Shown here: one piece after another, positions 34,597 to 39,663 of the stretch
Layout: every line of letters begins with the position of its first letter
How positions within the stretch are numbered: position 1 is the first letter of the stretch
Assembly (NCBI GenBank): GCA_022578605.1
Contig: MU394072.1
Coordinates: forward strand, 496,001 to 560,000
Direction: 5' to 3'
Length of the DNA: 64,000 nt
Source of the DNA: Camillea tinctor
Taxonomy: Eukaryota; Ascomycota; Sordariomycetes; Xylariales; Xylariaceae
The notes under the pieces: generated by a model
Told to the model about the DNA's origin: nothing
Seen by the model: only the letters and a program-made list of their open reading frames with translations
The model's database searches: none
Translations under genes and position numbers: made by a program

Positions 34597-35883
34597 GAGG
34601 TCCGACAACCCTCTATTCAGTCGCTCTTGTTTTCTTCTACTCTTTTCTTACTATACACACATCCACATTTCGTCCCCAAAATTTAGGACAATTTCAGGGT
34701 CTGTCTTTTCTAGACTGGCAACAACAACAACAACAACAATCATGGCATACGGAAACGGCGTTATTTAAGATGGCAAAAAGCGGAATGGCACATACCCACA
34801 AAACGAAACCCCAAAAAATACACAATATCAGGTCTGGGAGGCTTTATAGGTGGATGCAAAGCTCGTCAACCCCGCTGATAGGGATAAATGCATTCAGCGG
34901 CGTTTTTATTCCCCCTTCCGTTTTCACTATTTGGCTTTCGATGGAGGATGTGGTAATGGAACACGAAGGCGAGGAGGGAGGTATGGAAGAAGGGCAAATT
35001 CCTGTCGATAAATAGGAACGCATTCACGCCCACAATTGGGCAGGTCAGAACAACCAAATACACACAAATGACCTCCTCTCAAGACCTTTCAAGACGAATT
35101 GAAACGAACCAATGTGAAATCGTTTATGGTTTTATTTCTTTTTTTTTCCTTTTTTTTTATTAATAACAGCGCGGCGTTATAAAGGCTAGATGTGTGTGTA
35201 CTTCTATCATATACCTACATTTACTAAAGTGAACAACGGAATAAATCCCTTTTTTAGGGTTGTGCGTTTGGGTTTCTCTCGGATCTTCCTTTCTTTTTTT
35301 TCTTCTCTTCTCTGTGGCGATAGTTGTCATTTACCTTTACCTCTGTGACTCGGACAAGTATCAAAAACTTTGAGATGCGAGTTAGTATTAAGTTGAATAT
35401 CTCGCTTACGCTCGGGTTTACAGAGTTCGGGCGTGTGCAGTCTTGCGAAGCTTAATATAAGTCGATTCTGCAGACCATAGTGGCGAGGAAGAGGGCCGTT
35501 TCTTTGCGCAATAGCATAATACGCGCCTTGGGGGGGGAGTACATACTAGAGTCTGCGAGTGGAGGGTATACGCAAAGGCAAGGATAATAGCGAATTATAA
35601 TGCAAAGATGTGGATAGATACTCCTCTGTAACTAAGCCTACCTCTAAGTTACCCATTGAGCGCCAGGGGGTAAATCGAATACAGAAGAATTAGTATGTGG
35701 TGTGCAGGTATTCTGAGTTGAGTAAGATAATGTTACAGTGAACGCACAGCTTGTGCAGTCCGCAGCCGGCGCCGTCGATAACTAACTAATACACACATCA
35801 ACCTCGATCCACCTATCAAGCAAACCCGCCCCTTTTCCTTTTCTCCAAATCCTACAAGTCCCCCGTCCATGTTACGCAACCCC
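34597..35883. other. Spacer between convergent TFIIE-beta and nuclease-ATPase genes
   Basis: 3' flanks of both genes. A CAACAA tract lies at 34719-34738 and T-rich runs at 35136-35160. No gene seen. Confidence 0.55.
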
Positions 35884-38800
35884 CTACGCGGAAGAAGAAG
35901 AAGAAGAAGAAGAAGCCGTGCTCCTAATCCTCACACCCCCGACCTCGAACTCGGTGCCCGCATCCCCCGCCCGCGCCGTCACCACGCCGGCGGGCTCGCT
36001 CGCGTCCTCGGCGAGGCGCACGAAGCTCTGGCTGTGCGTGATGACGAAGACGTGGGCGAGCGGGCGCGCGACCCAGCGGCACAGCTTCAGCACGGCGCCC
36101 TGGCCCGCGCGGTCCAGCCCGTCGAACGCCTCGTCCACGAGCATGTACCCCGTGCGGTGCGCGCTGCGCGCCTCGCTCATGACGAACAGCGCGAAGAAGA
36201 GCGCCAGGTCGACGCGCTTGCGCTCGCCGCCGCTCTTCTTGGCGTAGCCCAGGGTCGTGGACATGCTGAGGGATGGGTCGAGGACGGGGGTCGGTGCGTC
36301 CTTGTCCTTGCTGTTGTCGTTGGAGCTGGAGCTGGAGCTGGATGGTTCGGAGGCGTCGTTGTCGTCGCCTTCGAACAGGGTGCGCAGCGTGCTGGCCACC
36401 ATGCTCCGCGCGTAGTGCGCGTCCTCGTACATGAACATGAGGACCTCCACCAGCAGCTTGTTGAGCTCCCCCAGGTGCCGCCCCACCACGTACCGGCGGA
36501 ACGTGGTCTTCGATGCGGCGACCTGGCGCCGGGTGAAGGCGATCTGCCAGAAGGCGAAGATTTCCTGGTGAGACTGCACGTCTGCGATTTCTTTGCTGAG
36601 CTCGGCGGCTTGGAGCTTGAGTTTAGCGAGGGATTCCTCTTCCGATACGACCAGCTCTTCGTAAGTGGCGATTTCCTGTTCTTTCCTGGCGAGCAGAAGA
36701 CGATACCTGTCCGAGGATTCTACTTGATCCCTCTCTGCTACCTCGATCTCCTTCTCTTGTTTTTCAACTTCACGGAGCTTGCGGTGCTGCTTCTGCTCCT
36801 GCTTCTCGTGTTCAAGTTGTAATACTGCACGTCGGTTATACAGGGCCCCCAGGTCATTGATAGCTTTCACACGCTTATCAGGGACTTCCGATGCTTCTTG
36901 TATTGTTAATGTTCGTATAGCATGGCGAAGGTCGCTCTCGCTAATTTTAGTCTTGCTAACAACATTGCTGAAAATACCTTCCCCTTTGTCTATGATTTTC
37001 CTTACTCTACCCTGTGCATGATCAATGCTGTCGGAGAAAGCTGACACGGCCTTCACGTGTTCACCCCAACGTCGTCTCGCTTCCATAGCTCTAATAGCGG
37101 CCTCTTCAATTATCCTGGCTCTCTTCCTTGCTGCCGGGCTAATGGCGAGAAGGACAGATGTCCAAAAGTTTCGCAAGACAGGTGTGATGTTCAATAGGAA
37201 AGCTCGAATACTACCAACATCGTGTATTTCTTTATGCTCATTTTCTTGTACGACCGGAGGCGGGATTTCCAATGTGCTGTTATTTTGAAAAAGGTGTTCA
37301 AGGTCGTCTTCAAGGTTTTGAAACCGTGTTACAGTATCTGCTATCTCTTTCTGGATGTTGATTCGCTCTTGGTCTACAGACAAGCGAGCTTGAGCGAGTC
37401 TGGCCAACTCGTCAAGTCTGTTCATCTCATTTAGCGCCCGAGAAATATCACTTTGAAGGCTCTGAAGCATGGGTTTCAAATCCGGTAAAAGCTGTAGAGC
37501 CTCCAGTTCGGCCTGGAGCTTGTTTTTATTCAACTCTTTGGCGCTCAGGAGTGCAGCGTGTTGCTTTTTCTTGCCTTCCATGTCCTTAGTGAGAGATGCT
37601 ACCTCGTAACGCAGGCGTCTTAATGTCTGCTCTGCGTGCTGGACTCGACTGTTTAGGTGCTCTATCGTGTGAGAAACTCCTTTAAGTCGCGATTGTATAC
37701 CTTCTAGCTTCTCCTTCACTTGATTGAGCATCAGGTTGCAGACCTCGTAGCATTCATCTAGGACCTTCAGGTCCAAAACTGACTCGATCAACTGCCTCTT
37801 TTCTAATGAAGTAGAACTTAGAAAGCTTTGAGAACTCTCATTCCCGAGCAGTACTATTCTGATAAATGTGTCAAAGTCTATTCCTAGCAGATTGTTAATA
37901 GATGTCTGGGTGCTTTTAGCGTCAGGTCCTTCGAATTGTGGTTGAATTACGCCGTTCTTTTCCACAACTACACGATTATGGAATTTGTGGTGCTTTCGAG
38001 ACCGCGAGATCGAGTATCCATTTGCAAATGTTAGACGGACGTTGCAGTTCTTCCTCGCAACGTCATTCACGATGTCGTTTACGCCCAGGCCACCCCGAAT
38101 ACACTGCCCAAATTGGCACCACACAATTGCCTCAGTAATGGTACTCTTCCCTGCTCCGTTGTGACCCACTATTAAGTTTACCCCTGGCTGGAAGTGATGC
38201 TTGAAATCAAGGTTGAGGGTGCCCTGGACGCCAAGAAAGTTCGTGATCTCGATAGCAATCAGGTCCGCAGCAAAAATAGTTTCTGTTGCAGATCCCCGTT
38301 GGGTGTCATCTTCGGAGATAAAAGGAGTAGATTGGGGTGACGGGTCAAGTATATCTCCATACTTAATTTCACAGCCGGCCTTGTCACCGATACAATGCCG
38401 GATGTTGAAGAGCCTTTTCCCTACAAGGGATAGAATATCACGCCTATCTTCAAGGGTAGATTCAAGGTCTAGAGATGACACGTATTCGTGGATAAGTTCT
38501 TCTAGGTCAATTGGACGATGCTTCATCTCATCAGCGATCAGTTTTTGCTGTGGTTCGGCAGTCCGAGGACCAGCAAGACCAGGCCAGGTATTCCCTGTTT
38601 CTTTTAAGCCTGCCTCATCTGTGTCAACTGGTTGAAGCTGGATATCGGCAGGGAGAGCTGTGTTCCCAAGGCCTGTTTGCTTGAATTGCCATTTCGACGC
38701 AGCATGCTTCCAGTCTCTTACACTACGCACTCCTAGTTTAACAAGGTGATCCCTAGCAGAGATGTATTTGTATGGCGATGACTTCCCAGTGATCATAACA

Positions 38801-39663
38801 TGCTTATCATGAACCTTTTCGGCGTCTGTCCGGTCCGCTAGCACATCTTGTATTTCTACAGACGTGTAGCCCACGGCATATGGGTTCTCGACAAGCTCAC
38901 TCTCCAAGGTTTGAGGGTCGAGTAAGATAGCGCCTTTGTTCGTATCGAACAAATCCGCCCAGGTGAGTTGCAATGGCGCTCCGATGTAGGTTATACTCCC
39001 ATGGGGGTCTTGGGGTTCCGTGTTCGTAGCTTGGAAGATAGTTTGGTGACTGTGAAAGTGGCCGGTGAACGTCCTTGCCAGTGGGGCAAATTCGCCGGCG
39101 CTGGTGAGGCCTGGGTACCTGGCAGGCAGCCCGGGGCGTCCGGTCTCGGGATTTATGGTGTGCTTTTGGGTAATGGCTCGGTTGATTGCCAGATGTCCAA
39201 ACCCCACCGTCTTAGCCGCGATGTTGGGATCTAGGTCGCGTATGTATTTAATAATTTCGCCTTGGTCCTCTCGGAACGGCATTACCAGCACGCGCCTTTC
39301 ATCCCATTTGTGACATGCTATCTCGGTGTGAAGCGTAACGAATGGGGCTAACCGAGTGATAGCCAGGGCCTCTAAAGCCGAAGTGGTGTAGTCCCGGCGA
39401 TAGGCCAAGTCATGATTACCCAAAATAACGTCGACATGGGGCACGGTGCTGGTTAGCTTGCCCAGAAAGCGGTAGCATGCTGCGAGCACATTGGTGGGCT
39501 GTGAAGTGCGTGCTGTGAACACATCACCGCAGAGTATTACTCTGGAGATGTTATACTCATGCGGTAATGAGGCGATCCAGTCGGCTGTGCGAATGACACG
39601 GTCGAGGTCATTAAATTTGAAATGGAGGTCACTCGCTAGCAGCCAGCGAGGATTAACTTTCAT
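35884..39663 (-). CDS. Single-chain SbcD/Mre11-like nuclease fused to SbcC/Rad50-like ATPase
   Basis: One uninterrupted frame of 1259 residues. Residues 1-245 form a calcineurin-like phosphoesterase with all metal motifs: D12-x-H14 (SDLHF), GD (46-47), GNHD (82-85), H157 and GHFH (201-204). Residues 250-460 resemble a capping domain and linker. An ABC-type ATPase head follows: Walker A GHNGAGKST (500-508), then coiled coil (about 640-795), apex (about 796-850), returning coil (about 850-1035), signature KSGGERKR (1143-1150), Walker B YMLVDEAFDGLD (1173-1184) and H-loop ITHSQ (1208-1212). Nuclease first and ATPase second matches the SbcD-SbcC gene order of bacteria and phages. There is no CxxC hook. 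Poly-Ser runs occur at about 1107-1114 and at the C-terminus. Predicted role: ATP-gated DNA end processing in nucleus or mitochondrion. Eukaryotic Mre11 and Rad50 are separate, so this is not their simple orthologue. Confidence 0.88.
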   Translation of the reverse strand: MKVNPRWLLASDLHFKFNDLDRVIRTADWIASLPHEYNISRVILCGDVFTARTSQPTNVLAACYRFLGKLTSTVPHVDVILGNHDLAYRRDYTTSALEALAITRLAPFVTLHTEIACHKWDERRVLVMPFREDQGEIIKYIRDLDPNIAAKTVGFGHLAINRAITQKHTINPETGRPGLPARYPGLTSAGEFAPLARTFTGHFHSHQTIFQATNTEPQDPHGSITYIGAPLQLTWADLFDTNKGAILLDPQTLESELVENPYAVGYTSVEIQDVLADRTDAEKVHDKHVMITGKSSPYKYISARDHLVKLGVRSVRDWKHAASKWQFKQTGLGNTALPADIQLQPVDTDEAGLKETGNTWPGLAGPRTAEPQQKLIADEMKHRPIDLEELIHEYVSSLDLESTLEDRRDILSLVGKRLFNIRHCIGDKAGCEIKYGDILDPSPQSTPFISEDDTQRGSATETIFAADLIAIEITNFLGVQGTLNLDFKHHFQPGVNLIVGHNGAGKSTITEAIVWCQFGQCIRGGLGVNDIVNDVARKNCNVRLTFANGYSISRSRKHHKFHNRVVVEKNGVIQPQFEGPDAKSTQTSINNLLGIDFDTFIRIVLLGNESSQSFLSSTSLEKRQLIESVLDLKVLDECYEVCNLMLNQVKEKLEGIQSRLKGVSHTIEHLNSRVQHAEQTLRRLRYEVASLTKDMEGKKKQHAALLSAKELNKNKLQAELEALQLLPDLKPMLQSLQSDISRALNEMNRLDELARLAQARLSVDQERINIQKEIADTVTRFQNLEDDLEHLFQNNSTLEIPPPVVQENEHKEIHDVGSIRAFLLNITPVLRNFWTSVLLAISPAARKRARIIEEAAIRAMEARRRWGEHVKAVSAFSDSIDHAQGRVRKIIDKGEGIFSNVVSKTKISESDLRHAIRTLTIQEASEVPDKRVKAINDLGALYNRRAVLQLEHEKQEQKQHRKLREVEKQEKEIEVAERDQVESSDRYRLLLARKEQEIATYEELVVSEEESLAKLKLQAAELSKEIADVQSHQEIFAFWQIAFTRRQVAASKTTFRRYVVGRHLGELNKLLVEVLMFMYEDAHYARSMVASTLRTLFEGDDNDASEPSSSSSSSNDNSKDKDAPTPVLDPSLSMSTTLGYAKKSGGERKRVDLALFFALFVMSEARSAHRTGYMLVDEAFDGLDRAGQGAVLKLCRWVARPLAHVFVITHSQSFVRLAEDASEPAGVVTARAGDAGTEFEVGGVRIRSTASSSSSSSSA
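35890..35915 (+). repeat. (GAA)n microsatellite coding a C-terminal poly-Ser
   Basis: AGA/GAA triplets give Ser8 at the very end of the fused nuclease-ATPase. This is likely to vary in length between strains. Confidence 0.85.

What the first reader, a model, noticed from the sequence alone, without database searches (positions are those of the whole stretch)
35884..39663. Single-polypeptide Mre11/SbcD-Rad50/SbcC fusion in a fungus
Seen: one uninterrupted 1259-codon frame with a complete SbcD-like phosphoesterase (SDLHF, CGDVF, GNHD, GFGHL, GHFH) followed by a complete SbcC/Rad50-like ATPase (GHNGAGKST, KSGGERKR, LVDEAFDGLD, ITHSQ). Known: Mre11-Rad50, SbcD-SbcC and T4 gp47-gp46 are two-chain complexes, and a eukaryote already has separate Mre11 and Rad50. 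Inferred: an extra DNA end-processing enzyme with fixed 1:1 stoichiometry, perhaps gained as an adjacent phage/bacterial sbcD-sbcC pair that lost the stop between them. Possible jobs are mitochondrial DNA or plasmid maintenance, hairpin cleavage or defence against foreign DNA.
Basis: partly seen in the sequence, partly recalled or inferred. Interest (0 to 1): 0.87.

Follow-up and report, generated by a model that had tools for sequence, protein, structure and literature searches.

The report
Fungal one-piece phage-type Mre11-Rad50 nuclease
This fungal gene encodes, in one chain, a DNA-end-cutting machine that most organisms build from two proteins; fused versions were already known in other eukaryotes and viruses, but this fungal branch has lost the usual zinc clasp, and its sister proteins look as if they are sent to mitochondria.

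Summary
In detail: one intronless 1259-codon frame (35884-39663, MINUS strand) carries a complete SbcD/Mre11-type nuclease and SbcC/Rad50-type ATPase. Among collected relatives 180 have both halves, mostly Sordariomycetes; catalytic residues are kept in at least 108 of 113 scored. The same genome has separate canonical RAD50 and MRE11. Both halves resemble T4-like phage gp47/gp46 rather than these, and 26 sampled fusions form one group in each half-tree. The architecture is not new: Mre11/Rad50 fusions in eukaryotes, viruses and plasmids were described in 2011 (PMC3175470), without fungi. New here: the fungal branch; loss of the Rad50 zinc hook in its Sordariomycete type, with a hydrophobic coil apex instead; presequence-like N-termini in 14 relatives of the other type, 12 of them with the hook; and rejection of one Sordariales clade, suggesting transfer between fungal orders. 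Most likely a single-chain phage-type MR nuclease, ancestrally mitochondrial (inferred). Verdict: new variant of a known kind.

The parts
35884..39663 (-). single-exon gene for the Mre11/Rad50-type fusion protein, 1259 aa (P0001)
38674..39648 (-). nuclease plus capping region, about aa 6-330; metal-ligand positions D12, H14, D47, N83, H84, H157, H202, H204
38404..38505 (-). helix-loop-helix, aa 387-420, candidate for the Mre11 Rad50-binding element, inside the inter-domain linker
   Evidence: AlphaFold2 model of window aa 300-1259; similar helices at 389-427 in the Fusarium model; function inferred
37765..38268 (-). ATPase N-lobe, aa 466-633
38140..38166 (-). Walker A GHNGAGKST, aa 500-508
   Evidence: K506 in 113 of 113
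37279..37764 (-). ascending coiled-coil arm, aa 634-795
   Evidence: model
37102..37278 (-). coil apex, aa 796-854, without CxxC zinc hook
37132..37206 (-). hydrophobic apex segment, aa 820-844, in the region where other relatives have the zinc hook
   Evidence: Kyte-Doolittle 19-residue peak 1.31; alignment
36535..37101 (-). descending coiled-coil arm, aa 855-1043
   Evidence: model
35926..36246 (-). ATPase C-lobe, aa 1140-1246
   Evidence: PF13558 and PF02463, model
36214..36237 (-). ABC signature KSGGERKR, aa 1143-1150
   Evidence: S1144 in 113 of 113
36112..36141 (-). Walker B and D-loop LVDEAFDGLD, aa 1175-1184
   Evidence: E1178 in 112 of 113
36028..36042 (-). H-loop ITHSQ, aa 1208-1212
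   Evidence: H1210 in 111 of 113

Best explanation
It is a single-chain Mre11-Rad50-type DNA end/hairpin nuclease of phage gp47-gp46 descent. Two chains are expected to dimerise through their nuclease domains and, when ATP is bound, through their ATPase heads; the helix-loop-helix in the linker would dock on the base of the coil, and ATP hydrolysis would open the nuclease channel to a DNA end (inferred from the MR family). The fusion fixes a 1:1 ratio. In the ancestor of this clade it most likely worked on mitochondrial DNA (ends, hairpins, recombination intermediates), beside the separate nuclear MRE11-RAD50. In the Sordariomycete branch, which holds this window, the zinc hook and the long presequence are gone; two chains may meet there through a hydrophobic coil apex, and the compartment is open. 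Shown: architecture, intact motifs, phage-type kinship, one group in each half-tree, hook loss. Inferred: activity, dimer geometry, location.
Confidence: 0.6

Rival explanations
1. A nuclear or cytosolic accessory nuclease, kept because it destroys or processes foreign or mobile DNA (defence-like), and passed between fungi.
For: Sordariales proteins are not one clade: AU test p 0.0002 (group chosen after the tree was seen). F. solani and Chaetomium strumarium proteins are 85.7% identical, while two Trichoderma are 61.9% and two Fusarium 63.2%. Divergent copies occur under one species name (Gaeumannomyces tritici P0057 and P0059, possibly different strains). The ATPase half matches defence ATPases: mad3 63 bits and LmuB 38 bits in the window protein, LmuB 91 bits in the Rhizina relative. 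Most Sordariomycete-type proteins have no long N-terminal extension.
Against: Matches to defence ATPases are partial and shared across this ATPase superfamily; in the window protein they are weaker than to phage SbcC-like phrog_77 (193 bits). The window's copy sits among ordinary genes (TFIIE beta, transketolase-type, F-actin capping protein). Old duplications, unequal rates or mislabelled records could mimic part of the cross-order pattern; control gene trees were not built.
Confidence: 0.25
2. A structural DNA tether rather than a nuclease: ATPase and coil matter, and the hydrophobic apex attaches DNA to a membrane or joins two molecules.
For: In 148 of 157 Sordariomycete-type coils the hydropathy peak lies in the middle (relative position 0.40-0.66), against 7 of 22 of the other type; median 19-residue peak 1.18 against 0.60.
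Against: Metal ligands are conserved, so the nuclease is under selection. Only 15 of 157 peaks reach 1.6 (the usual transmembrane threshold, recalled), and only 14 of 157 exceed 95 of 100 shuffles of their own coil. Rows are related, so counts are not independent.
Confidence: 0.1
3. A gene-model artefact or remnant: two neighbouring genes read as one.
For: No RNA data for this window.
Against: One open frame in genomic DNA without introns; the same fused order in 180 collected relatives; one of them labelled a complete ORF on an assembled transcript (P0178); catalytic sites conserved.
Confidence: 0.02

Closest known systems
Mre11/Rad50 (SbcDC) fusion proteins, Yoshida, Claverie and Ogata 2011 (Mimivirus R555, moss, diatom, Micromonas, slime moulds, bacterial plasmids and chromosomes, a Bacillus phage), PMC3175470
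   Same: Same N-to-C order in one chain; outside the canonical clades in that paper; canonical split genes also present in the cellular hosts except Deferribacter; a stretch of Mre11 capping and HLH length between the halves in most.
   Different: Fungi, zinc and hook are not mentioned there, and mitochondria only for MutS7. The Deferribacter fusion is not matched by the fungal-family profiles, so it is probably an independent fusion.
T4-like phage gp47/gp46 (and SPO1-like relatives)
   Same: Best-scoring relatives of both halves outside the fusion clade among those compared; nuclease and ABC motifs.
   Different: Two separate genes: of 94 loci scanned only the window's own and one archaeal MAG were fused. 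Some phage proteins in the fold search are long enough to be fusions.
E. coli SbcD-SbcC and archaeal Mre11-Rad50
   Same: Fold of both halves.
   Different: Two chains; lower profile scores than phage proteins (E. coli); zinc hook (recalled).
Canonical fungal MRE11 and RAD50 of the same genome
   Same: General fold and chemistry (recalled).
   Different: Separate genes on other contigs; RAD50 has CELC in its coil and scores 23 bits with the family's ATPase profile; the MRE11 frames do not match the nuclease profile.

Membership tests
Mre11/Rad50 fusion proteins (2011 description) | Mre11/SbcD-like domain followed by Rad50/SbcC-like domain in one polypeptide | tested here: met
Mre11/Rad50 fusion proteins (2011 description) | Canonical split genes also present in the same cellular genome | tested here: met
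Mre11/Rad50 fusion proteins (2011 description) | Placed outside the canonical clades | tested here: inconclusive
   profile scores point that way, but the own RAD50 joined the tree only on a very long branch and MRE11 could not be placed
Mre11/Rad50 fusion proteins (2011 description) | Common descent with the named eukaryotic and Mimivirus fusions | not testable with these tools
   their sequences were not at hand by name; giant-virus proteins appear only as fold matches with low TM scores
Mre11/SbcD nuclease | Metal-ligand motifs D-x-H, GD, GNH, H, GHxH | tested here: met
   D12 108, H14 109, D47 109, N83 109, H84 112, H157 112, H202 112, H204 112 of 113
Mre11/SbcD nuclease | Capping domain and Rad50-binding helix-loop-helix | tested here: inconclusive
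   capping fold covered in the match to S. aureus SbcD; helix-loop-helix modelled, docking not measured
Rad50/SbcC ATPase | Walker A, signature, Walker B, D-loop and H-loop in a split ABC head | tested here: met
Rad50/SbcC ATPase | CxxC zinc hook at the coil apex | tested here: not met
   absent in the window protein; CxxC anywhere in the coil in 4 of 158 Sordariomycete-type, at residue 946-947, about 120 residues past the apex peak; present in 21 of 23 relatives of the other type
SbcC (NCBIfam TIGR00618) | Score over the curated cut-off of 478.5 bits | tested here: not met
   77.6 bits
Mitochondrial protein | N-terminal basic, acid-poor presequence | tested here: inconclusive
   pattern in 14 relatives of the other type, weak in two of them; not in the window protein, which starts 10 residues before motif I
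Anti-phage defence ATPases (Lamassu LmuB, mad3) | Match to defence models together with partner genes | tested here: inconclusive
   63 bits or less for the window protein, 91 bits LmuB for Rhizina; partner genes not examined

The most novel reading that the evidence does not exclude
A phage-derived single-chain MR nuclease is the dedicated end/hairpin-processing enzyme of mitochondrial DNA in several eukaryotic lineages, alongside other phage-like mitochondrial replication proteins; in Sordariomycetes it swapped the zinc hook for a hydrophobic apex that joins molecules, or tethers DNA to a membrane, and then spread horizontally between fungal orders.
Probability: 0.2. Interest if true: 0.8.

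Novelty: new variant of a known kind. Interest (0 to 1): 0.5.

Why it matters
If the location inference is right, it names a candidate phage-type nuclease for mitochondrial double-strand breaks and hairpins, testable by tagging one gene. Independently of that, a large natural set of Rad50-type proteins without the zinc hook, next to hook-bearing sisters, is a natural experiment on what the hook is for, and a one-chain MR enzyme is convenient for structural work because its stoichiometry is fixed.

Tried and rejected
Novel architecture: rejected after PMC3175470 was found and read in part (parts 1-3 of 5; passages). Gain by this one fungus: rejected. Origin from the fungus's own MRE11 and RAD50: disfavoured by profile scores. 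Plasmid and phage records: partial matches only, no place over 80% of the query. Viral relatives with the window protein alone: none in viral contigs; with the family alignment, phage-type split genes. Hidden upstream exon with a presequence: the upstream in-frame stop and the short tails of most relatives argue against it; not excluded without RNA. Foreign composition: GC3 and codon usage lie within the range of neighbours, nearest to the own RAD50. Antisense ORF 35869-36822 (+) as a gene: one Pfam match, under its cut-off. Pfam's hook model in the own genome: three places, none over the cut-off, one of them inside the canonical RAD50 frame. Hook in some Trichoderma: the CxxC lies about 120 residues past the apex peak.

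Rows dropped or not used: one search left out four rows of the nuclease tree (E. coli, L014, L083, L026) and five of the ATPase tree (these and the own RAD50) that were. The half-trees hold 26 collected fusions (18 fungal, one EukProt, seven unnamed), 26 of 60 usable loci and 6 named pairs. One search used 74 and one search used 25 of the collected proteins. One search scored 14 of 23 proteins of the other type (7 begin after motif I, P0168 lacks its start, P0186 has no extension; 12 of the 14 have CxxC, P0174 and P0182 do not) and 142 of 158 Sordariomycete-type; in the other 16 motif I was not found or lay more than 25 residues in, some with long N-terminal parts that may be gene-model errors. 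One search used 157 of 158 and 22 of 23. 'Sordariomycete-type' (P0001-P0112, P0121-P0166) includes unnamed metagenome proteins. Searches listed 120 of 141 and 120 of 271 hits, so the breadth beyond those is unseen. In the half-trees the root is not inferred.
Full report
What is there. PHROG models give SbcC-like 2.5e-56 and SbcD-like 1.6e-21; Pfam sees only the ATPase half in this protein. There is one match to it in a 44.7-Mb genome of 154 contigs. Closest relatives are Biscogniauxia proteins at 70-73% identity, so the host is probably a xylarialean ascomycete (inference).

It is a conserved protein. The window protein gave 141 hits, 120 listed; a 28-row alignment 271, 120 listed; three distant rows 27. 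Of the 191 proteins collected, 182 match both the nuclease and the ATPase profile; leaving aside two weak outliers (P0187, P0188), 180 are fusions of this kind: 158 of 158 Sordariomycete-type and 22 of 23 of the other type. I scored 113 of them of at least 1000 aa: D12 108, H14 109, D47 109, N83 109, and H84, H157, H202, H204 112 each; Walker A lysine 113, signature serine 113, Walker B glutamate 112, H-loop histidine 111. Part of the shortfall is gaps. Named hosts are Xylariales, Hypocreales, Sordariales, Diaporthales, Magnaporthales and Ophiostomatales (names, orders recalled) and Pezizomycetes (Rhizina, Tirmania, Terfezia, Kalaharituber, Peziza, Ascodesmis, class recalled). One relative, P0178 from EukProt, is labelled a complete ORF on an assembled transcript.

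The genome also has the ordinary pair. TIGR00606 finds a RAD50 frame of 1327 aa on contig 46 at 539 bits, with CELC in its coil. TIGR00583 and PF04152 find MRE11 on contig 2, in pieces that suggest introns.

The hook is gone in one branch. CxxC occurs in the coil of 4 of 158 Sordariomycete-type proteins, all at residue 946-947, about 120 residues past the apex peak. Of 23 relatives of the other type 21 have one, mostly CPTC; P0174 and P0182 do not. Where the hook would be, the Sordariomycete type has a hydrophobic stretch: 19-residue Kyte-Doolittle peak, median 1.18 (range -0.06 to 2.01, 104 of 157 at 1.0 or more), against 0.60 in 22 of the other type; 148 of 157 peaks lie in the middle of the coil against 7 of 22. 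Against a strong reading: only 14 of 157 peaks beat 95 of 100 shuffles of the same coil, only 15 reach 1.6, and rows are related. I read it as a hydrophobic contact surface; a membrane role is only possible.

The N-terminus. Fourteen relatives of the other type with a readable start (12 with the hook) carry extensions before motif I; 11 of 14 have no D/E in up to 35 residues, and for 13 of 14 at most 1.3% of same-length windows of the same protein are as basic and acid-poor. Mitochondrial presequences look like this (recalled). P0167 and P0182 fit poorly, and P0186 has no extension. In 142 of 158 Sordariomycete-type proteins motif I comes within 25 residues (median 12), and these tails hold 3 D/E in 875 residues against 13.3% elsewhere in the same proteins. 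The window protein starts 10 residues before motif I, and a stop follows six open codons upstream of its ATG. A DNA-contacting tail is the alternative reading.

Ancestry. With profiles of the family, viral contig L017 scores best outside the clade on all three domains (138, 123, 71 bits), the second by a single bit only behind (L015, 122 bits). L017 is a phage replication cluster with DNA polymerase, clamp loader and clamp. T4 gp47/gp46 score 70/88, E. coli SbcD/SbcC 24/64, the own RAD50 23, and the own MRE11 frames do not match. The viral loci were fetched with the family's own patterns. In careful trees of 54 rows the 26 fusions (18 fungal, one EukProt, seven of unknown host) are one side of a branch in the nuclease half (96/93) and the ATPase half (99/97), among phage-type sequences. 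With long rows kept, E. coli SbcC fell inside the ATPase group, which I take as long-branch attraction. The nearest phage is not resolved. One fusion event before these lineages split fits best; the Deferribacter plasmid fusion is not matched by the profiles and an archaeal-MAG fusion (L014) lies far away, so fusion has happened more than once.

Movement between fungi. In a 74-row tree Diaporthales, Magnaporthales, Apiospora and Pezizomycetes each hold together, Xylariales need two changes, and Hypocreales and Sordariales, five changes each, are mixed. With 25 rows, holding Sordariales together costs 51.6 log units, AU p 0.0002 (the group was chosen). F. solani and Chaetomium strumarium are 85.7% identical, while two Trichoderma are 61.9% and two Fusarium 63.2%. 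Transfer between orders is the likeliest reason; control gene trees are missing, and record labels were trusted. Neighbours of the window's copy are ordinary genes.

What is known. Yoshida, Claverie and Ogata (2011, PMC3175470; I read parts 1-3 of 5 and passages) described thirteen such fusions including six eukaryotes, with canonical genes beside them in the cellular hosts except Deferribacter, and favoured viral origins. The words for fungi, zinc and hook do not occur in its text, and mitochondria only for MutS7. Seven held papers contain its title, itself included (listing only). Ten library searches (one more failed) found no report of the fungal family or of a function (listings and abstract starts only apart from this paper); bioRxiv and most subscription papers are not held.

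Verdict. Observation confirmed; novelty of the architecture refuted; a new, hook-less fungal variant of a known kind, with a testable mitochondrial lead.

Noticed in passing
L014 1802-4954 (+): A contig of a MAG labelled archaeon carries one 1050-aa ORF with SbcD-like and SbcC-like halves next to a DNA primase; far from the fungal clade, so another independent fusion, possibly viral.
   Followed up: partly
window 35869-36822 (+): 317-aa ORF antisense to the C-terminal end of the fusion gene; third-position GC of the fusion gene there is 0.88-0.95; one Pfam match, under its cut-off. Probably a shadow ORF.
   Followed up: partly
P0122 (Cladobotryum mycophilum): The fusion protein is annotated as a cytochrome P450 with a P450 domain attached (1547 aa), probably a joined gene model.
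   Followed up: no
P0057 and P0059 (Gaeumannomyces tritici), P0135 and P0162 (Fusarium lateritium): Divergent copies under one species name, possibly from different strains (60.5% identity for the F. lateritium pair).
   Followed up: partly
fold search of the Fusarium model: Giant-virus proteins (Tupanvirus, Catovirus, Harvfovirus, Yasminevirus, Tetraselmis virus, Pyramimonas orientalis virus) and phage proteins (Listeria phage LMTA-57 first) of about 870-1420 aa align along most of the model with low TM scores (0.24-0.41); many look like further viral fusions.
   Followed up: no
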